64,000 nucleotides of DNA, taken from Massilia sp. YIM B02763 (lineage in GTDB: Bacteria; Pseudomonadota; Gammaproteobacteria; Burkholderiales; Burkholderiaceae_D). A model generated the notes under the pieces. It saw only the letters and a program-made list of their open reading frames with translations. It was not told the origin of the DNA and did no database searches. Positions 53,769 through 64,000 of this stretch are shown piece by piece (position 1 is the first letter of the stretch; every line of letters starts with the position of its first letter). Where the stretch lies: NCBI RefSeq assembly GCF_030412015.1, contig NZ_JASNRD010000014.1, positions 1 to 64,000 of the forward strand, given 5' to 3'. The translations under genes and the position numbers were made by a program.

Positions 53769-53928
53769 GGATACGTATCAAACGTGCGGCGCTGGACGTG
53801 GCCGTGACGCCCGGTAACGTGCGGGCCGGGCCCGGTACCCGATGCTAAGCTGGATGTTCGTGCCGGCCCCGGGGCGCGGCGCGCCGTTACCTCCACCCAA
53901 CGTTACGCAGAGCATCGAAAGGATCGAC

Positions 53929-55158
53929 ATGAAAGCCGTTGTATTCCACGACGTCGGCGACATCCGCCTCGAAGACGTTCCCGAACCCCGCATCGAAGGA
54001 CCGCAGGACGCCATCGTCCGCATCACCACCAGCGCCATCTGCGGCACGGACCTGCACTTCGTGCGCGGCAGCTTCAGCGGCATGGAAGCGGGGACGATCC
54101 TCGGGCACGAGGCGGTCGGCATCGTCGAGCAGCTCGGAAGCAACGTGCGCAACCTGTCGATCGGCGACCGGGTCGTGATCCCCTCGACCATCGCCTGCGG
54201 CTATTGCTCGTACTGCCGCGCCGGCTACTATGCCCAGTGCGACAACGCCAACCCCAACGGCCCGTCGGCTGGCACCGCCTTCTACGGCGGGCCGAAGGCG
54301 ACCGGCCCGTTCAACGGCCTGCAGGCCGAGAAGGCGCGCGTCCCCTTCGCCAACGTGAACCTGATCCGCCTGCCGGACGAGGTCACGGACGACCAGGCGA
54401 TCCTGCTGTCCGATATCTTCCCGACGGCCTGGTTCGGCGCCGACCTGGCGGACATCGAGCATGGCCACACGGTGGCCGTGTTCGGCTGCGGTCCGGTCGG
54501 CCAGTTCGCGATCGCCTCGGCCAAGCTGATGGGCGCGGCGCGCGTGCTGGCCGTCGACAACCTGCCGGACCGCCTGGAGGTCGCGCGGCGCCAGGGCGCG
54601 GAGGTGATCAATTTTGACGAGGAGGATCCCGTCAAGACCATTCTCGAGCTGACGGGCGGCATCGGCGTCGACGCCGTGATCGATGCCGTGGGCGTCGATG
54701 CCGCATGCCCGCACCATGGCCCGGCCGCGCAACAGGCGGCCGAGAAGAAGGAGCAGTTCGAGCGCGAGGTACAGGAAGTGGCGCCGCACCAGCATCCGGA
54801 CGGCGACAACTGGCATCCGGGCCAGGCGCCGTCCCAGGCCCAGCAGTGGGCCGTGCAGGCGCTGGCGAAGGCAGGCACGCTGTCGATCATCGGCGTGTAT
54901 CCGCCGTCGGACAACTCCTTCCCGATCGGCAGCGCCATGAACAAGAACCTCACCATCCGCATGGGCAACTGCAACCACCGCAAATACATTCCCGACCTGA
55001 TCGAACTGGTGCGTACGGGGGCCTTCGACCCGACCTCGATCATCACCCAACGCGAAGGCATGGAATCCGTGATCGACGCCTACAAGGAATTCGACCTGCA
55101 CCGCCCCGGCTGGCTGAAGGTCGAGCTGATCGAGTCGCGCGACGGCCGGCGCGGCTGA
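53929..55158 (+). CDS. Zinc-dependent alcohol dehydrogenase (FdhA-like)
   Basis: A 409-residue medium-chain dehydrogenase. The catalytic zinc site is C38, H60 and E61 (ICGTDLH, GHEAVG), and the structural zinc site has C90, C93, C96 and C104 (ACGYCSYCRAGYYAQC). The NAD fold follows in VAVFGCGPVGQFAIASAKLMG. An insertion of about 60 residues (about 258-315, rich in Q/E) is typical of the glutathione-independent formaldehyde-dehydrogenase-like group, so aldehyde or alcohol oxidation is likely but not certain. ATG 53929 follows AAAGGA; an in-frame ATG at 53842 lies in the promoter region. It stands alone, with the LysE gene convergent. Confidence 0.9.
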   Translation: MKAVVFHDVGDIRLEDVPEPRIEGPQDAIVRITTSAICGTDLHFVRGSFSGMEAGTILGHEAVGIVEQLGSNVRNLSIGDRVVIPSTIACGYCSYCRAGYYAQCDNANPNGPSAGTAFYGGPKATGPFNGLQAEKARVPFANVNLIRLPDEVTDDQAILLSDIFPTAWFGADLADIEHGHTVAVFGCGPVGQFAIASAKLMGAARVLAVDNLPDRLEVARRQGAEVINFDEEDPVKTILELTGGIGVDAVIDAVGVDAACPHHGPAAQQAAEKKEQFEREVQEVAPHQHPDGDNWHPGQAPSQAQQWAVQALAKAGTLSIIGVYPPSDNSFPIGSAMNKNLTIRMGNCNHRKYIPDLIELVRTGAFDPTSIITQREGMESVIDAYKEFDLHRPGWLKVELIESRDGRRG

Positions 55159-57110: not shown

Positions 57111-58508
57111 GTGAGTCTTTTCAGAACCAAGAATCTCGACAACATGGTCGCGTCCGCCGCTACCCCTGGCGGACTGAAGAAGGTACTGGGTCCGACCGAC
57201 CTGATCCTGATGGGCATCGGCGCCATCATCGGTACCGGTATCTTCGTGCTGACCGGCGCGGGCGCGCTGACTGCGGGCCCGGCACTGACGGTGTCCTTCA
57301 TCGTCGCCGCCATCGCCTGCGGGTTCGCGGCGATGTGCTATGCCGAGTTCGCATCGACCGTGCCGATCGCCGGTTCGATCTATACCTACAGCTATGCGGT
57401 GCTGGGCGAACTGGTGGCGTGGATGATCGGCTGGGACCTGCTGCTCGAGTACGGCCTCGCCACGTCGACCGTCGCCAGCGGCTGGTCGGGCTATTTCCAA
57501 TCGCTGATGGCCGGTTTCGGCCTCGAGATTCCCAAGGTGCTGTCGGCCGCGCCGGGCGCGCTGCCGGGCGTGCAGACCTATATGAACCTGCCGGCCCTGT
57601 GCATCATGCTGCTGCTGACCTGGATGCTGTCGCTGGGCGTGCGCGAATCGGCGCGCGTGAACAACGTCATGGTGATCATCAAGACCGTGGTCGTGCTGCT
57701 GTTCATCTTCGTGGGCTTCAAGCACGTGGCGCCGGCCAACTGGCACCCGTTCGCCCCGTTCGGCGTGAACGGCATCATGAGCGCCGCCGCCGTCGTGTTC
57801 TTCGCCTTCATCGGCTTCGACGCCGTGACCTCGGCCGCCGAGGAAGTCAAGCGTCCGGAGCGTGACCTGCCGATCGGCATCATCGGTTCGCTGCTGATCT
57901 GCACCGTCCTGTACGTGATCGTGGCCGGCATCATGACCGGCATCGTCCCGTTCAAGCTGTTCGAAGGCGTCGACCATCCGGTCTCGCTGGCCCTGCAGCA
58001 CGCGGGCGAGAACTGGTTCGCCGGCTGGATCGACCTGGGCGCGATCCTGGGCATGACCACCGTGATCCTGGTGATGGCCTACGGCCAGACCCGCATCATC
58101 TTCGCCATGTCGCGCGACGGCTTGCTGCCGGCCAAGCTGTCGACCGTGCATCCGAAATACGGTACCCCGTTCTTCGCCACCTGGATGGTCGGCATCGTGT
58201 TCGGCCTGATGGCCGCCTTCGTGCCCCTGAACGTGCTGGCCGAGCTGGTCAACATCGGCACGCTGGCCGCGTTCTGCCTGGTGTCGGTGGCCGTGATCGT
58301 GCTGCGCAAGAAGCGTCCGGACCTGAAGCGCGCCTTCCGCTGCCCGGGCGTGCCCGTCGTGCCGGCGATCGCCGTGATCTTCTGCCTGGCGCTGATGTCC
58401 TTCCTGTCGGCCATTACCTGGATCGCCTTCGGCATCTGGCTGGCGATCGGCCTGGTCGTGTATTTCGGCTACGCGCGTTCGCGCTCCAAGCTGCATGTCC
58501 AGCAATAA
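57111..58508 (+). CDS. APC-superfamily amino acid permease (CAT/YhdG type)
   Basis: A 465-residue transporter with about 12 TM helices. TM1 is LMGIGAIIGTGIFVLTG, the classic APC motif; IAGSIYTYSYAVLGELVAWMIG and FFAFIGFDAVTSAAEEVKRP mark the cationic amino acid transporter-like group. The start is GTG 57111 with GGAG 6 bases upstream and MSLFRTKNLDNM-like wording that fits the family; an in-frame GTG at 57021 would add 30 residues. The gene is monocistronic, with a promoter with long leader upstream and a terminator downstream. The substrate is probably a cationic or neutral amino acid. Confidence 0.92.
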   Translation: MSLFRTKNLDNMVASAATPGGLKKVLGPTDLILMGIGAIIGTGIFVLTGAGALTAGPALTVSFIVAAIACGFAAMCYAEFASTVPIAGSIYTYSYAVLGELVAWMIGWDLLLEYGLATSTVASGWSGYFQSLMAGFGLEIPKVLSAAPGALPGVQTYMNLPALCIMLLLTWMLSLGVRESARVNNVMVIIKTVVVLLFIFVGFKHVAPANWHPFAPFGVNGIMSAAAVVFFAFIGFDAVTSAAEEVKRPERDLPIGIIGSLLICTVLYVIVAGIMTGIVPFKLFEGVDHPVSLALQHAGENWFAGWIDLGAILGMTTVILVMAYGQTRIIFAMSRDGLLPAKLSTVHPKYGTPFFATWMVGIVFGLMAAFVPLNVLAELVNIGTLAAFCLVSVAVIVLRKKRPDLKRAFRCPGVPVVPAIAVIFCLALMSFLSAITWIAFGIWLAIGLVVYFGYARSRSKLHVQQ

Positions 58509-58545
58509 ATAAAGTGTGTGCCGCGGCTGCCGCGGCGGACTCGGA

Positions 58546-58571
58546 AGGGCGGCCGCGAGCCGCCCTTTTTC
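58546..58571 (+). terminator. Rho-independent terminator of the APC permease
   Basis: AGGGCGGC pairs with GCCGCCCT around CGCGA, followed by TTTT, 38 bases after the stop codon. Confidence 0.9.
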
Positions 58572-58735
58572 ATGGATTGACGCATTGCCATCAGGAATGA
58601 ATATAAAAATATCTTTCTTGAAATGAATGCATTTTTTGTAATCATTGTCCGACAACGAGGAGGGGAGCGTACCGATTACGTCCTCATGCACCGGTCCGCA
58701 TAATCGAGGTAGAACAGTTACCAAAAAGATTTGCC

Positions 58736-60196
58736 ATGACCTCTACGTTTGCCATCGAGAGCACGAATGCGCGTACCACCCCGGAGACACGCGCCGCCAT
58801 CCCCGCCCTGGATTCGAAAGCACTTTATTTTGCACTGCTGGACAATCCGGCCGAGCATGTGGAAGCCGCGCGCGCCTACCTGCGCGCGCAGATCGAGGCC
58901 ACCCGCGCCGAACCGGACGAGCTGCCGGATGCGCCGTGGCAACTGCCGGGCTGGATCCAGGGCCGTTCCGAAGCCGTGGGCCTGTCCTACCGCGAATACC
59001 TGGCTGCGCGCAAGAACGGCGCGCCGCGCCGTTATTTTTCGAACAAATCGCACGCCCTGTACTTCCTGAAGGGCGCTGCGCCGACCAAGCTGGTCGACGG
59101 CGCCTGGCTGTACGGCGTGCTGTCGCGCTGGGAAAACCCGGACTACCACCCGCTGATCAAGACCTATCTCGAAGAGCTCGGCGACGGCGTGCCGGACAAG
59201 AACCACGTCACGCTGTACCGCCGCCTGCTGGCCGCCCACGGCTGCGAGCATTGGGAAGGCCTGTCCGACGACTACTTCGTCCAGGGCGCGATCCAGCTGG
59301 CGCTGGCCTACTGCGCCGACCAGTTCCTGCCGGAAGTCGTCGGCTTTAACCTGGGCTATGAACAGCTGCCGCTGCACCTCTTGATCACGTCCTACGAACT
59401 GAACGAGCTGGGCATCGACCCCTACTATTTCACGCTGCACGTCACCGTCGACAATGCCGGCAGCGGCCACGCCCACAAGGCCGTCCAGGCCGTGCGCAGC
59501 CTGGCGGCCCAGTCGAGCGACCCGGCCGCGTTCTGGCGCCGCGTGCTGGACGGCTACCGCCTGAACGACCTGGGCGCCTGCACCACCTCCATCATCGGCT
59601 CGTTCGACCTGGAGGCGGAGCTGGTCGAGATCTTCACGGCGAAGGCGGCCATCGGCAAGAACATGCATTCGGATTACTGCCGCGTGGCCGGCCGTTCCGT
59701 CAACGACTGGCTGTCCGAACCGGCCGATATTCCCGCCTTCCTGAAGGCGATGGAAGACGCGGGCTGGATCCAGCGCGGCGAACCGGTCGAGAACAGCCGC
59801 TTCTGGCGCCTGATCCAGGGCGAGCGCGCCGAGATGTTCGGCGTGTTCTCCGCCTACGAGCAGGAAGTGCTGCGCGACTGGATCACGAGCACCCGCGACG
59901 ACGTCAAGACGAGCCGCACGGGCCGCGTCCTGTCCCACCGCGCGCGCCAGCGCACGCTGGACAAGCTGAACCAGCAGGGGGAGCGCAGCGGCTACCCCGA
60001 ACGGGGCCTGATCCGGCGCCGTAGCGCCGGCACGGGCGGCGACAGCGAACTGATCCAGCTGGAAGAGCGCGTTGCCAACGCCGCGGGCAAATCCGAGGCG
60101 ATGTCCATGCTGGCGCGCCTGATGTCGCCTTCCGTGCATCATACGGCTATCGGCCTCATGGCGACCCGCATGTATTCCAAACTGCTCGACGCCTGA
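58736..60196 (+). CDS. Haem-oxygenase-like iron-containing redox enzyme upstream of cphA
   Basis: A 486-residue soluble protein. Residues about 150-350 look like the haem-oxygenase-like diiron fold (iron-containing redox enzyme family): E209 and H214 in GYEQLPLHLL, and H235-x3-D239-x5-H245 in LHVTVDNAGSGHAHKA are candidate iron ligands. Members of this superfamily carry out N-oxygenation or C-C cleavage of amino acid-derived substrates. The N-terminal 120 and C-terminal 110 residues have no recognised domain. It lies 83 bp upstream of cphA on the same strand. No ribosome site is seen before ATG 58736. The 164-bp upstream gap is AT-rich with a weak TTACGT-N17-CATAAT pair. Confidence 0.8.
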   Translation: MTSTFAIESTNARTTPETRAAIPALDSKALYFALLDNPAEHVEAARAYLRAQIEATRAEPDELPDAPWQLPGWIQGRSEAVGLSYREYLAARKNGAPRRYFSNKSHALYFLKGAAPTKLVDGAWLYGVLSRWENPDYHPLIKTYLEELGDGVPDKNHVTLYRRLLAAHGCEHWEGLSDDYFVQGAIQLALAYCADQFLPEVVGFNLGYEQLPLHLLITSYELNELGIDPYYFTLHVTVDNAGSGHAHKAVQAVRSLAAQSSDPAAFWRRVLDGYRLNDLGACTTSIIGSFDLEAELVEIFTAKAAIGKNMHSDYCRVAGRSVNDWLSEPADIPAFLKAMEDAGWIQRGEPVENSRFWRLIQGERAEMFGVFSAYEQEVLRDWITSTRDDVKTSRTGRVLSHRARQRTLDKLNQQGERSGYPERGLIRRRSAGTGGDSELIQLEERVANAAGKSEAMSMLARLMSPSVHHTAIGLMATRMYSKLLDA

Positions 60197-60220
60197 CGTT
60201 TACAACAGAAGCTTTACCCT

Positions 60221-60257
60221 GGGACGCGGCCGCCGGCACCACCGGCGGCCGCGTCCC
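60221..60257. other. Perfect 16-bp hairpin between the iron enzyme and cphA
   Basis: GGGACGCGGCCGCCGG and its exact complement flank CACCA. It lies in the 83-bp gap, 24 bases after the first stop and 22 before the cphA start codon, and has no T-run. It might end the first transcript, or protect mRNA ends to give unequal expression in a shared operon. Confidence 0.75.
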
Positions 60258-60279
60258 GTTGTCCAGAACGAGGAATCCT

Positions 60280-62913
60280 GTGCACATACTTGAACAACGC
60301 TTCCTGCGTGGCCCGAACATCCACGCGGAATCCCCATGCCTGCTGTCCGTGCTCGACCTCGACGACTTGTACGGCGTCTCCACCCGCGATATCCCCCAGT
60401 TCACCGTCGCCTTGCTCGATCTGCTGCCGTCGCTGGCGGACTACCTGGTGCCGACCGGGCAACCGGGCGGCTTCGCGCAGCGCCTGCGCGAGGGCACCTA
60501 TCTCGCCCGCGTCGTGGAACACGTGACCCTCGGCCTGCAATGCCTGGCCGGCGCGCCAGTCGCCTTCGGCCGCACGCGTCCCGTGACGGGCAAGCCGGGC
60601 CAGTACCGCGTGGTCGTCGCCTACCTGCAGGAAAAGGTGGCGCAGCCGGCCTTCGCCCTGGCCGTCGACATCGTCGACGCACTGGCCCACGGCAAGCCGT
60701 TCGACCTGGAGCCGCGCCTGCAGGAATTGCGCGACGTGGCCGAACACTATGCGATCGGCACCAGCACGGCAGCCGTGCTGGCGGCCGCGCAGGAACGCGG
60801 CATTCCCGTGCAGCGCATCACCGAGGATGCCAACCTGTTCCAGTTGGGCTGGGGTGCGAAGCAGAAGCGCATCCAGGCCACCGTCACGGGCGACACGAGC
60901 ACCATCGCCGTGCGCATCGCCGGCGACAAGCAGCTGACCAAGCAATTGCTGCAGGAAGCGGGCGTGCCCGTGCCCCAGGGCGAAACCGTCACGACGATCG
61001 AGGATGCGCTGCGCGTGGCGCGCAAGCTGGCGGTGCCCGTCACCGTCAAGCCGCTCGACGCCAACCAGGGCAAGGGCGTGACCGTCGACTGCCGCACGGA
61101 CAGCGAAGTCGAGCAGGCCTACGCGTTCGCGCGCAAGCATGGCCGCCGCGTCATCGTCGAACGCTTCGTCGAGGGCGCCGACTACCGCGTGCTGGTCGCC
61201 GGGGGCAAGGTGGCGGCCGCTTCGTGCCGGCGCCCGGCCCATGTCGTGGGCGACGGCATCAGCACCGTGCGTGACCTGGTCGACGCGGAAAACGCGAATC
61301 CCGCGCGCGGCGCCGGCCACACGAACATCCTGACGAAGATCGCGCTCGACGCCCACGCCGAGGACCTGCTGCGCAAGCAGGGCTACGTGCCGGACGCCGT
61401 CCCGCCGGCCGGCGCCACCGTCTATTTGCGCGGCAACGCCAACCTGTCGACTGGCGGCACCGCCGAGGACGTGACGGACCTGCTGCCGGAATCCACGCGC
61501 CGCCTGTGCGTGCGCGCCGCCGCCAAGATCGGCCTGGACGTGGCCGGCATCGACATCGTATGCCGCGACATCGCCGTGCCGCTGGACGAGCAGGGCGGCG
61601 CCGTCATCGAGGTCAATGCCGCGCCGGGCATCCGCATGCACCAGCATCCGAGCAGCGGCCAGGCGCGCGATGCGGGCGACGCCATCGTCGAGGGCATGTT
61701 CGGCCATGGCGACGGCCGCATTCCCGTCATCGCCCTGACCGGCACCAACGGCAAGACCACCACCACGCTGCTGATGGCGCACACGGTGCGCCTGGCCGGC
61801 CGCGTCACCGGGGTGACGACCACGCACGGCGTCTACATCGACGGCAAGCAGGTGGCGAGCGGCGATTGCACCGGCTACTGGTCGGCACGCACCGTGCTCG
61901 CCTCGCCCGACGTGGAATTCGCCGTGCTGGAAACGGCGCGCGGCGGCATCCTCAAGCGCGGCCTCGCGTTCGACCGCTGCGACGTCGGCATCGTGCTGAA
62001 CGTGGCGGCCGACCACCTGGGCCTGGACGGCGTCGACACGATCGAGGACCTGGCCCAGGTGAAGGCCGTGGTGCCGATGTCGGCGTCGCGCGCCGTCGTG
62101 CTCAATGCGGAGGATCCGCTGTGCGTGGCCATGGCGCGCCGCATCCACCCGGACGTCGAGATCGTCTACTTCGCGATGGAGGCCGACAATCCCGTGCTGC
62201 TGCGCCACCTGGAAGAGGGCGGCCGCGCCACCTATTTCCAGGACAACGCCATCGTCGTCGCCGACGCGACCTACCACCAGGAGCTGCTGCGCGTGGAATC
62301 CATGCCCATCGCCTTCGGCGGCCGCGCGCGCTACAACATCGCCAACGCGCTGGCCGCGGCGGCGGGCCTGATGGCGTCCGGTTTCACCAACCTCCAGATC
62401 GCGACCGGCCTGTCGACCTTCGTCAGCGACGGCAAGACCAATCCGCTGCGTACCAACGTGTTCGACGTGCGCGGCGTGACGGTCATCGTCGACTATGCGC
62501 ACAACAAGGCGGCGTATTCCGCCCTCGTCGAGATGGCGCGCGCGCTGCTGCCGGGCCAGTTGGTCGGCATCGTCACGGCGCCCGGCGACCGGCGCGACGC
62601 CGACCTGATGGACGTGGGCCGCGTGTGCGGGGCCGGCTTCGACGAACTGGTCGTCTACGATTCGGCGCCGCGCGGCCGGCCCGCTGGCGAGGCCGTGGAC
62701 CTGATCCTGCGCGGCGCCGAGGAAGTGGTCGGCGTGTCGGACACGCTGCGCCGCGAACTGGACGTGGGCAAGGCGGTGCGCCTGGGCCTGTCGCTGTGCG
62801 AACGGGGCGACGTGCTGGTGTTCGCCTGCGGTTCCTCGCTGGACGTGTTCGTGGAAGCGATCCGGGAGATGGATCCGGAGAGTGCGCAAAAGATCGCGGC
62901 GCAGGTGGGATAA
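60280..62913 (+). CDS. cphA: Cyanophycin synthetase
   Basis: Polymerises aspartate and arginine into cyanophycin with ATP, non-ribosomally, in the cytoplasm. The 877-residue length is typical of CphA. An N-terminal domain (about 1-160) is followed by an ATP-grasp domain (about 210-480: VTVKPLDANQGKGVTVDC, EVNAAPGIRMHQHPS), which adds Asp, and a Mur ligase-like domain (about 485-870) with P-loop GTNGKTTTT, ADHLGLDG and NVFDVRGVTVIVDYAHN, which adds Arg. Start GTG 60280 (VHILEQRFLRGPNIH) with GAGGA 5 bases upstream; a TTG at 60259 is in frame. A second, convergent cphA-like gene follows. Cyanophycinase is not seen. Confidence 0.95.
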   Translation: MHILEQRFLRGPNIHAESPCLLSVLDLDDLYGVSTRDIPQFTVALLDLLPSLADYLVPTGQPGGFAQRLREGTYLARVVEHVTLGLQCLAGAPVAFGRTRPVTGKPGQYRVVVAYLQEKVAQPAFALAVDIVDALAHGKPFDLEPRLQELRDVAEHYAIGTSTAAVLAAAQERGIPVQRITEDANLFQLGWGAKQKRIQATVTGDTSTIAVRIAGDKQLTKQLLQEAGVPVPQGETVTTIEDALRVARKLAVPVTVKPLDANQGKGVTVDCRTDSEVEQAYAFARKHGRRVIVERFVEGADYRVLVAGGKVAAASCRRPAHVVGDGISTVRDLVDAENANPARGAGHTNILTKIALDAHAEDLLRKQGYVPDAVPPAGATVYLRGNANLSTGGTAEDVTDLLPESTRRLCVRAAAKIGLDVAGIDIVCRDIAVPLDEQGGAVIEVNAAPGIRMHQHPSSGQARDAGDAIVEGMFGHGDGRIPVIALTGTNGKTTTTLLMAHTVRLAGRVTGVTTTHGVYIDGKQVASGDCTGYWSARTVLASPDVEFAVLETARGGILKRGLAFDRCDVGIVLNVAADHLGLDGVDTIEDLAQVKAVVPMSASRAVVLNAEDPLCVAMARRIHPDVEIVYFAMEADNPVLLRHLEEGGRATYFQDNAIVVADATYHQELLRVESMPIAFGGRARYNIANALAAAAGLMASGFTNLQIATGLSTFVSDGKTNPLRTNVFDVRGVTVIVDYAHNKAAYSALVEMARALLPGQLVGIVTAPGDRRDADLMDVGRVCGAGFDELVVYDSAPRGRPAGEAVDLILRGAEEVVGVSDTLRRELDVGKAVRLGLSLCERGDVLVFACGSSLDVFVEAIREMDPESAQKIAAQVG

Positions 62914-62929
62914 GGAAGATCGGCAATGA

Positions 62930-62966
62930 AAAGCCGCCCGTGCTTGCGCAGGGGCGGCTTTTTTTG
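62930..62966 (+). terminator. Rho-independent terminator of cphA
   Basis: AAAGCCGCCC pairs with GGGCGGCTTT across about 12 bases and is followed by further T residues. It may also work for the convergent cphA-like gene given the A-run on the left. Confidence 0.88.
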
Positions 62967-62983
62967 TGACGCAACCGTTAAAA

Positions 62984-63072
62984 GACGTCGCCCCCACGCA
63001 GGCGGGGACCCAAGTTCCGCGCGCGCCATCGCTGCGCATGAAAACCGGGTCCCTGCCTGCGCAGGGACGACA
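62984..63072. repeat. REP-like composite element between convergent cphA genes
   Basis: A left imperfect hairpin (GTCGCCCCC...GGCGGGGAC, 62987-63008), CCCAAGTTCC (63009-63018), then ACCGGGTCCC leading to a right perfect hairpin, GTCCCTGC-CTGC-GCAGGGAC (63049-63068). CCCAAGTTCC and the GGGTCCC segment recur at 32815-32855, and the right stem matches part of the 3604-3633 hairpin. Confidence 0.75.
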
Positions 63073-63085
63073 TGTCGGCGTTAAC

Positions 63086-64000
63086 TCAGACCGCTTCGGC
63101 CGCAATCCTGCGCGCCGTCTCCGGCGACGTCGGCCGGATCGCCTCCGTCAGTTCCGTGATCGACGAGCCGCAGCCGAACACCAGCACGTCGCCGGGCTCG
63201 CAGCGCGCCAGCCCGGCGCGGATCGCCTTGTGCACGTCCAGCTCCACCTGCAGGTGGTCGGCCTCGAACTTGGCCAGTTGCGCGCCCTGCACCAGCAGCT
63301 GGGACACGGCGCCGGAGGCGCGGCCGCGGTTCTCCGTCTCGTAGACGACCAGCTCGTCGAAGCCGGCGGCGCAGGTCGCGCCGATGTCGACCAGGTCGCC
63401 GTCGCGGCGGTCGCCCGGCGCGGCGACGACGCCGACCAGGCGGCCCGGCGTCATCGCGCGCGCCGTCTCGGCCAGCGCGGCGTAGGCGGCCGCATTGTGG
63501 GCGTAGTCGACGATGACGGTAACGCCGTCCACGTCGAAGACGTTCGAGCGCAGCGGATTATGCTTCCAGTCCGAGACGAAGGTGCGCAGGCCGTCGGCGA
63601 TTTCCAGGTTGCCGAAGCCGGTCGCGGCCAGCGCCGCCGCCGCCGCCAGGCTGTTTGCGATGTTGTAGCGGGCCGCGCCCTTGAGGGTGACGGGCATGGT
63701 GCGCACGTCCAGCAGCGCTTCATGGCGGCTGGCGCCGGCCAGCACGATGCTGTTGTCCTGCAGGTACACGGCGCGGCCGCCTTTTTCCAGGTGGCGCAGC
63801 AGCACAGGGTTGTCGGCGTCCAGCGCGAAGTACAGCACCTCGACGCCCGGATCCAGCTGGCCGGCCATCGCCACGCAATGGTCGTCCTCGGCATTCAGCA
63901 CGACGGCGCGGCGCGCGCGCCGGGCGATGACGCTCTTCACGCGCGCCAGCTCCTCGACGCTGTCGATGCCGTCCAGGCCCAGGTGGTCGGCGGAGACGTT
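63086..64000 (-). CDS. Second cyanophycin synthetase-like gene (partial, cut by window end)
   Basis: Only the last 304 residues are in the window; the reading frame runs off the end without a start (a GTG at 63940 is internal). Visible is the Mur ligase-like C-terminal domain of a CphA-type protein: ADHLGLDGIDSVEELARVK at the edge, then LEKGGRAVYLQDNSIVLAG, NVFDVDGVTVIVDYAHNAAAY and APGDRRDGDLVDIGATC. The order matches the corresponding part of cphA (61980-62913) with many identities. It is convergent with cphA, 172 bp between stops. Whether the ATP-grasp half is present, hence cphA2 or a second cphA1, cannot be decided here. Confidence 0.88.
   Translation of the reverse strand, partial: NVSADHLGLDGIDSVEELARVKSVIARRARRAVVLNAEDDHCVAMAGQLDPGVEVLYFALDADNPVLLRHLEKGGRAVYLQDNSIVLAGASRHEALLDVRTMPVTLKGAARYNIANSLAAAAALAATGFGNLEIADGLRTFVSDWKHNPLRSNVFDVDGVTVIVDYAHNAAAYAALAETARAMTPGRLVGVVAAPGDRRDGDLVDIGATCAAGFDELVVYETENRGRASGAVSQLLVQGAQLAKFEADHLQVELDVHKAIRAGLARCEPGDVLVFGCGSSITELTEAIRPTSPETARRIAAEAV

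What the first reader, a model, noticed from the sequence alone, without database searches (positions are those of the whole stretch)
58736..64000. Haem-oxygenase-like iron enzyme next to two convergent cyanophycin synthetase genes
A 486-residue putative diiron enzyme lies upstream of cphA in the same direction, and a second cphA-like gene is convergent. Iron enzymes of this fold oxidise amino-acid-derived substrates, so modification or turnover of cyanophycin, arginine or a related peptide is conceivable. I do not know of a described function for this pairing.
Basis: inference. Interest (0 to 1): 0.6.

Follow-up and report, generated by a model that had tools for sequence, protein, structure and literature searches.

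The report
Stress-type iron enzyme beside cyanophycin genes
A soil bacterium of the Massilia group keeps an iron enzyme, related to one that helps Acinetobacter survive drying, next to the genes that make and break down its nitrogen-storage polymer, and relatives of that enzyme often travel with a partner methyltransferase in other bacteria, which points to an unstudied pathway that may feed on stored arginine or protect resting cells.

Summary
A 486-aa PF14518 protein (58736-60196) precedes a full cyanophycin synthetase gene, and a second is convergent; past the window end come cyanophycinase and isoaspartyl peptidase genes. The pairing is not strain-specific: 45 of 52 related loci hold cphA; of 195 family genomes, the 26 with this cphA clade all have the enzyme, 24 of them within 5 kb. 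The enzyme is a full-length homologue of Acinetobacter DtpC (36.5% over 446 aa), a desiccation and peroxide protectant of unknown chemistry; three residues essential in DtpC are conserved. Its closest solved folds are N-oxygenases. Other cyanophycin clusters carry that methyltransferase with a different, shorter PF14518 enzyme, so the set probably arose twice. Most likely an N-methylation/N-oxygenation pathway on an arginine-type nitrogen, or a plain stress protectant; substrate, product and metal are unknown.

The parts
58736..60196 (+). DtpC-family haem-oxygenase-like (PF14518) putative diiron enzyme, 486 aa; candidate metal ligands E147, H157, E209, H235, D239, H245, possibly D121
60280..62913 (+). 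cphA_a, cyanophycin synthetase, 877 aa from GTG 60280 (884 aa from TTG 60259); keeps the VVEHV motif of the N-terminal domain
63086..64000 (-). cphA_b, second, convergent cyanophycin synthetase; only the C-terminal part lies in the window, whole gene is contig 63086-65683; lacks the VVEHV motif
60221..60257 (+). perfect GC-rich inverted repeat (16-bp arms, 5-base loop, no T run) between the enzyme gene and cphA_a
   Evidence: z -5.2 here; not shown to be general
58545..58570 (+). terminator-like hairpin with T run behind the upstream permease gene (read by eye and by folding; the consensus scan did not list it)
58618..58645 (+). sigma-70-like promoter match upstream of the enzyme gene; weak evidence
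   Evidence: 1 found, 0.4 expected
57114..58508 (+). upstream neighbour: amino-acid permease of the BcaP type (728 bits, cut-off 690); present in 31 of the 53 loci compared, probably its own transcription unit here

Best explanation
The protein is a DtpC-family haem-oxygenase-like diiron oxidase/oxygenase (HDO). Shown by sequence: it forms a recurrent gene set with an N-methyltransferase-like protein (MT19, my label) and, in the Massilia group, with a dedicated cyanophycin cycle (two synthetases, cyanophycinase, isoaspartyl peptidase). Inferred: the cycle stores and releases beta-Asp-Arg and arginine; MT19 methylates a side-chain nitrogen of such an arginine-type compound; the HDO activates O2 at its two irons and oxidises a nitrogen of the same compound, much as SznE and SznF do with arginine. 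The product, or the use of O2 or peroxide itself, protects resting or drying cells, which would explain why relatives sit with catalase and trehalose genes and why DtpC lowers peroxide in dried Acinetobacter. In the window's genome MT19 lies on another contig (C17:60925-61845).
For: DtpC homology over the full length: 36.5% over 446 aa, E 2e-105; the A. baumannii gene is followed after 54 bp by a large catalase, as the paper says of dtpC-katE, and from its MPVVV start E143, H153 and H232 fall on our E147, H157 and H235. The seven candidate ligands are invariant in 46 close and 21 diverse sequences. Fold: RohS Z 18.9 over 261 residues, HrmI Z 17.8, SznF Z 16.6. MT19: in 43 of 195 family genomes, 42 of them with the HDO, against 56 of 195 HDO genomes in all; the 43rd (G086) has a short PF14518 protein beside MT19, with a broken frame. 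In the phylum draw 18 of 398 genomes have MT19, 17 of 18 have a PF14518 protein, adjacent in 14 of 18. MT19's best structural matches are N-methyltransferases: the gentamicin enzyme, aeronamide AerE, then a carbamoyl N-methyltransferase and PrmC. Cyanophycin link: this cphA clade (57% identity or more; the next matches are at 46%) in 26 of 195 genomes, all 26 with the HDO, 24 of 26 within 5 kb. Independent repeat: Sphingobium pKN1 cphA-iaaA-cphB-MT19-short HDO and genome G1055, of another class, with cphB-cphA divergent from short HDO-MT19; their cphA fall in another clade. SznE/SznF precedent: passages of PMC11705231.
Against: No substrate, metal or product is shown. 14 of 56 HDO genomes lack MT19, and DtpC works in A. 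baumannii, where MT19 was not found in the records that hold the homologue (E 1e-20). MT19 also occurs without a PF14518 gene: genome G925 has none, and of five MT19 plasmid records read (of 21 found) two show no HDO match in the stretch held (L150, L151). Most HDO-MT19 pairs outside the Massilia group stand without cphA in the stretch read. 30 of the 56 HDO genomes lack this cphA clade. Fold likeness to N-oxygenases shows no function; Foldseek itself reached only E 2.8e-3, and the profile match to RohS and SznF sequences is weak (E 0.7-1.1, below an unrelated kinetochore protein at 0.086). SznF's cupin domain is absent. Whether MT19 resembles SznE was not tested, and a methyltransferase fold matches very many chains (1477 at E 0.001).
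Confidence: 0.4

Rival explanations
1. Pure stress protectant: like DtpC, the protein limits peroxide or iron damage in resting or dried cells by using O2 or peroxide or by holding iron; it sits by cyanophycin genes because storage and protection are switched on together, not because it acts on an arginine compound.
For: DtpC phenotype and essential residues (PMC13232832); relatives on Acinetobacter plasmids within 9 kb of a catalase gene, DUF421 and trehalose OtsAB genes, on a Comamonadaceae plasmid with YsnF/AvaK and ferritin-like genes, in L104 with KatE and LigD, in L103 with a hemerythrin gene; no MT19 in the Acinetobacter records searched.
Against: Does not explain the company of an N-methyltransferase-like protein (42 of 43 MT19 genomes in the family draw) nor the pairing of MT19 with a different, short PF14518 enzyme elsewhere.
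Confidence: 0.34
2. Natural-product reading: cphA_a or its product serves as the peptide-forming step and the HDO oxidises the arginine side chain of a small peptide, as MboA does with Leu-Ala-Arg in mangotoxin.
For: MboA acts on an Arg peptide, and its authors counted 1447 HDOs near ATP-grasp ligases (PMC13185094).
Against: Both CphA are full synthetases with cphB and iaaA behind them; no redox-partner or peptide-synthetase gene was recognised in the ORFs read beside the gene, though not every flanking ORF was searched.
Confidence: 0.1
3. One reading: the enzyme modifies cyanophycin itself (oxidised arginine in the polymer) or is needed for its turnover.
For: Adjacency to cphA in several arrangements.
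Against: Relatives occur in genomes without a cphA over the cut-off and in A. baumannii records without a cphA match; a granule polymer is a poor substrate for a buried diiron site (inference).
Confidence: 0.08
4. Neighbourhood by descent only: an ordinary enzyme carried next to cphA in one clade without functional link.
For: The Massilia-group cases may descend from one joining event; the cphA of these loci form one clade.
Against: Different gene orders (HDO-cphA; HDO-cphB-cphA; HDO-MT19-iaaA-cphB-cphA; cphB-cphA-HDO-iaaA) keep the set together, and two other lineages repeat it with other homologues.
Confidence: 0.05

Closest known systems
DtpC of Acinetobacter baumannii (PMC13232832)
   Same: Homologous over the full length (36.5% over 446 aa), same three essential residues, single PF14518 domain with a long C-terminal region
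   Different: DtpC sits before katE in an operon; here there is no KatE match in the window or in contig 54000-72000, cyanophycin genes instead, and an MT19 gene elsewhere in the genome
SznF/StzF (with SznE/StzE), streptozotocin
   Same: HDO fold (Z 16.6); D121, E147 and H157 fall without gaps on SznF E189, E215 and H225 in a weak profile match; SznF works after an arginine N-methyltransferase
   Different: No C-terminal cupin here; the third His of the last helix is 6 residues behind the Asp here (H245 after D239), against 3 in SznF (recalled numbering); substrate unknown
RohS (azomycin) and HrmI (lysine N-oxygenase)
   Same: Best structural matches (Z 18.9 and 17.8)
   Different: 14-16% identity; this protein has about 180 further residues behind the HDO domain
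MboA (mangotoxin acetylenase, PMC13185094)
   Same: HDO found by its authors beside ATP-grasp ligases and acting on an arginine-containing peptide
   Different: Not among the 50 structural rows; has a dedicated redox partner, none recognised here
Cyanophycin gene clusters as surveyed in PMC10206079
   Same: cphA with cyanophycinase and isoaspartyl dipeptidase genes
   Different: 'iron', 'oxygenase' and 'Massilia' occur 0 times in that paper's main text; the HDO and MT19 are additions

Membership tests
HDO superfamily (haem-oxygenase-like dimetal oxidases/oxygenases) | Haem-oxygenase-like helical fold | tested here: met
   AF2 model pLDDT 81, pTM 0.81; RohS Z 18.9, rmsd 3.9 over 261 residues
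HDO superfamily (haem-oxygenase-like dimetal oxidases/oxygenases) | Three His, three carboxylate ligand set | tested here: met
   At sequence level only: E147, H157, E209, H235, D239, H245 invariant in A1 (46) and A4 (21); geometry not measured
HDO superfamily (haem-oxygenase-like dimetal oxidases/oxygenases) | Binds two metals and activates O2 | not testable with these tools
   needs purified protein
DtpC family | Homology over the full length, C-terminal region included | tested here: met
   36.5% over 446 aa, query 40-484; tblastn 35.1% over 96%
DtpC family | Residues essential in DtpC (E143, H153, H232) | tested here: met
   E147, H157, H235
DtpC family | Operon with katE (context in Acinetobacter, not a defining sequence feature) | tested here: not met
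   no KatE match in window or L009
DtpC family | Protects drying cells | not testable with these tools
   needs mutants
SznF-type N-oxygenase | C-terminal cupin domain | tested here: not met
   only PF14518 found; so not filed as SznF-type, though it may work like its HDO part
SznF-type N-oxygenase | Fourth carboxylate ligand (3H/4C) | tested here: inconclusive
   invariant D121 falls opposite SznF E189 in an ungapped but weak profile match; that E189 is SznF's fourth carboxylate is recalled
SznF-type N-oxygenase | N-oxygenates an arginine guanidine | not testable with these tools
   needs assay
Cyanophycin synthetase (TIGR02068) | Scores over the curated cut-off over the whole length | tested here: met
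   cphA_a 1046 bits, cphA_b 938.7 bits, cut-off 850
Cyanophycin synthetase (TIGR02068) | EH motif of the N-terminal domain (recalled as the primer-making hydrolase site) | tested here: inconclusive
   VVEHV in cphA_a, absent in cphA_b; its role is recalled, not tested
N-methyltransferase (GenN/AerE/PrmC-like) for MT19 | PrmC-like domain with NPPY motif and a fold closest to small-molecule or peptide N-methyltransferases | tested here: met
   NPPY invariant in 19; Foldseek E 1.6e-15 with the gentamicin enzyme, 2.2e-14 with AerE
N-methyltransferase (GenN/AerE/PrmC-like) for MT19 | Membership in a named family with a curated cut-off | tested here: not met
   below the cut-off of every NCBIfam model shown; so no named function is assigned

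The most novel reading that the evidence does not exclude
Cyanophycin in these bacteria is not only a nitrogen store but the feedstock of a two-enzyme pathway: MT19 N-methylates and the DtpC-type diiron enzyme N-oxygenates arginine or beta-Asp-Arg released from it, giving an N-oxygenated guanidine (for example a nitric-oxide or N-N-bond-forming compound) that protects dormant cells. DtpC's unexplained role in drying would then be the remnant of the same chemistry on free arginine.
Probability: 0.17. Interest if true: 0.85.

Novelty: new variant of a known kind. Interest (0 to 1): 0.6.

Why it matters
By its authors' account DtpC is the only HDO linked to desiccation tolerance so far, and its reaction is unknown. 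A partner methyltransferase that co-occurs with its relatives in the family studied here, and a repeated link to an arginine polymer, turn 'what does DtpC do?' into a short list of substrates to assay, in harmless soil bacteria. It would also give cyanophycin a role beyond storage.

Tried and rejected
Strain-specific or chance pairing: rejected. Haem oxygenase proper: the closest folds are non-haem diiron enzymes, and haem oxygenases (HmuO) come lower, at Z 8.7-8.8 (where Z under about 13 can mean only a common helical arrangement); haem binding was not tested. NCBIfam gave no family for the HDO and PADLOC none for it, so no defence role is argued. phmmer of the single sequence against solved structures found nothing at E 1; the profile found RohS and SznF only at E 0.7-1.1, under an unrelated kinetochore protein. 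Foldseek gave no match at E 0.001 or better; the ranking rests, a second look at Foldseek's own list.

Upstream permease as part of the unit: judged unlikely here, since a terminator-like hairpin lies between, though it is in 31 of 53 loci. Conserved intergenic hairpin: 32 of 35 other Massilia-group gaps fold at -22 kcal/mol or lower, but only 4 of 36 (this window included) reach z -3 against dinucleotide shuffles, so it is not claimed as a conserved element. An earlier count said '33 of 35', which is wrong.

Literature on the pairing: no paper holds both 'cyanophycin' and 'iron-containing redox enzyme', or 'cyanophycin' and 'heme oxygenase-like', or 'iron-containing redox enzyme' with 'methyltransferase' and 'operon'; only the open-licence library was searched. 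The structure papers of RohS and SznF were not held.

Biases and results against: the 52 loci came from peptide patterns of this protein and favour near relatives. The draws are even over the family but the species are related, so the Fisher values (2e-29 for HDO-MT19, 4e-17 for HDO-cphA clade) overstate independence; by genus 13 of 15 HDO genera have MT19 and 13 of 14 MT19 genera have the HDO, of 44. In the class draw only 7 of 369 genomes matched, three of them (G000, G266, G356) along most of the length: the family is uncommon there. The cphA tree holds mainly loci fetched because they carry the HDO; it is a quick tree with long branches flagged. G182 has a partial cphA of this clade (75% over residues 462-883) without the HDO and was left out of the 26; G091 (contigs apart) and G170 (unlinked) are the two of 26 not within 5 kb. 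'Within 5 kb' was read by eye.
Full report
What is there. The 486-residue ORF at 58736-60196 matches one Pfam family, PF14518 'Iron-containing redox enzyme' (E 3.9e-31). Behind it, after 83 bases if the GTG at 60280 is the start, lies a cyanophycin synthetase gene (TIGR02068 1046 bits). The convergent gene at the window end is a second full synthetase (938.7 bits), followed on its own strand by genes for a peptidase S51 (cyanophycinase) and an Asparaginase_2 (isoaspartyl peptidase) beyond the window. The genome has a further cphA pair on contig C23 (979.6 and 677.2 bits). The two local synthetases differ: cphA_a keeps a VVEHV motif in the N-terminal domain and cphA_b lacks it. I recall this as a primer-making site; no call tested it.

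Is the pairing real? In 52 related loci from named records, nearly all Oxalobacteraceae by title, 45 have cphA in the sequence held. Gene orders differ: HDO-cphA with a convergent cphA-cphB-iaaA in Massilia, HDO-cphB-cphA in Duganella sp. CF517, HDO-methyltransferase-iaaA-cphB-cphA in Pseudoduganella buxea, cphB-cphA-HDO-iaaA in Duganella aceris. In a draw of 195 genomes of the family, 56 have the HDO. A search with cphA_a finds the clade of this synthetase (57% identity or more; the next matches are at 46%) in 26 genomes; all 26 are among the 56, and 24 of the 26 have both within 5 kb (read). The exceptions are G091 (different contigs) and G170 (unlinked). G182 has a cphA fragment of this clade and no HDO match. 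A quick tree puts the cphA of these loci in one clade, away from the C23 pair (long branches flagged, and most rows were fetched because they carry the HDO).

What the enzyme is. AlphaFold2 gives a model with mean pLDDT 81; residues 1-23 and most of 391-434 are poor. The best solved matches are HDOs that oxidise nitrogen: RohS Z 18.9, HrmI 17.8, SznF 16.6; then an unnamed Pseudomonas protein 14.0, FlcD 13.5 and CADD 12.3 (Foldseek itself reached only E 2.8e-3). The residues expected as metal ligands, E147, H157, E209, H235, D239 and H245, and D121 as a possible seventh, are invariant in 46 close relatives and in 21 diverse ones. A profile match to SznF, weak in score (E about 1), puts D121, E147 and H157 without gaps on E189, E215 and H225 (residue names by chain position).

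The DtpC link. The A. baumannii gene read (L093) is followed after 54 bp by a large catalase gene, the spacing that PMC13232832 gives for dtpC-katE. Of that paper I saw the abstract and outline, passages, section 3 and part 1 of 2 of section 10. From an MPVVV start, E143, H153 and H232, which the paper found essential for desiccation tolerance, fall on our E147, H157 and H235. Identity is 36.5% over 446 residues. The authors could not name a mechanism. On Acinetobacter plasmids the relative sits within 9 kb of a catalase, DUF421 and trehalose genes; on a Comamonadaceae plasmid with YsnF/AvaK and ferritin-like genes.

The missed partner. Downstream of the HDO in Pseudoduganella is a methyltransferase, here called MT19. 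The same protein lies beside the HDO in 9 of 10 genomes with a match (of 244 searched) in the order of G356, another order of the same class (the tenth match is distant, in a 740-aa frame). In the family draw MT19 is in 43 of 195 genomes, 42 of them with the HDO. The 43rd, G086, has instead a shorter PF14518 protein beside MT19, with a broken frame. In about half of the genomes the two are apart: 19 of 41 pairs compared lie within 20 kb, plus G091. In the window's genome MT19 is on contig C17, at least 60 kb from the HDO by the contig lengths, next to a zinc peptidase and an anion-channel gene. In a phylum draw 18 of 398 genomes have MT19; 17 of these 18 have a PF14518 protein and 14 of 18 have it adjacent. 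MT19 carries a PrmC-like NPPY domain. Its model (pLDDT 75) is closest to the gentamicin N-methyltransferase and the peptide N-methyltransferase AerE, then a carbamoyl N-methyltransferase and, lower in the list, PrmC, so N-methylation of a small molecule or side chain is the likely activity. Methyltransferase folds match very many chains (1477 at E 0.001), so this is a lead.

A second assembly. On Sphingobium yanoikuyae plasmid pKN1 the order is cphA-isoaspartyl peptidase-cyanophycinase-MT19-short PF14518 enzyme-dicarboxylate symporter. In genome G1055, of another class of the phylum, cphB-cphA is divergent from short HDO-MT19. The short enzyme is a different PF14518 lineage (no more than a trace match to ours) and the cphA belongs to another clade. 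Of the 21 plasmid records with MT19 I read five: a short HDO is adjacent in three (Sphingobium yanoikuyae, Komagataeibacter, Variovorax; the last two without a cphA match in the stretch). The other two go against the pairing: Sphingobium sp. TomTYG65, with MT19 and the cphA-iaaA-cphB cluster on different plasmids, and Novosphingobium ES2-1 show no HDO match in the stretches held. Genome G925 has MT19 and no PF14518 match at all.

How it may work. From the literature: HDOs bind two metals through three His and three or four carboxylates and act mostly on fatty- or amino-acid-type substrates (PMC13108848, passages); SznE methylates arginine and SznF then hydroxylates the guanidine (PMC11705231, passages); MboA acts on an Arg tripeptide (PMC13185094, abstract, passages and sections 7 and 11). 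Inferred: MT19 and the HDO act in turn on a nitrogen of an arginine-type compound, which cyanophycin turnover supplies in the Massilia group and free metabolism elsewhere. The rival, that the HDO simply protects resting cells and shares regulation with storage genes, fits Acinetobacter better, and I give it nearly as much weight.

Verdict. The enzyme is of a known kind (HDO, DtpC family). The set of DtpC-type enzyme, N-methyltransferase-like protein and cyanophycin cycle is not in print as far as the searches show. Substrate, product and metal remain unknown.

Noticed in passing
window 60221-60257: Perfect GC-rich inverted repeat between the enzyme gene and cphA_a; 32 of 35 other gaps of the group also fold at -22 kcal/mol or lower with unrelated sequence, but few exceed shuffles (4 of 36 at z -3).
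   Followed up: partly
L079, L080, L081, L092 and record NZ_CP013105.1 (hit H16): Distant matches to the HDO profile inside open frames of about 710-820 aa; the plasmid match overlaps a gene annotated as LodA/GoxA family CTQ-dependent oxidase.
   Followed up: no
L160 (Pelagibacterium plasmid), L158 (Deinococcus plasmid): cphA-iaaA-cphB clusters on plasmids of a desert-soil and a dune-soil isolate with no HDO match in the stretch read; the first has a catalase gene nearby.
   Followed up: no
L048, L060, L115 (Duganella-type loci): HDO-linked cphA genes that match over a shorter length (689-752 aa); in L048 no Mur ligase family was found, suggesting degenerate or single-function synthetases.
   Followed up: no
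L102 5126-6238, L103 7913-9130: GCS2 carboxylate-amine ligase genes next to the HDO of two HDO-MT19 loci, a possible further partner.
   Followed up: no
window 53842-55158: ORF that looks by eye like a zinc alcohol dehydrogenase, 3.6 kb upstream of the enzyme gene (no family search). A zinc alcohol dehydrogenase gene also lies directly behind MT19 in L101. Relation of the two not tested.
   Followed up: no
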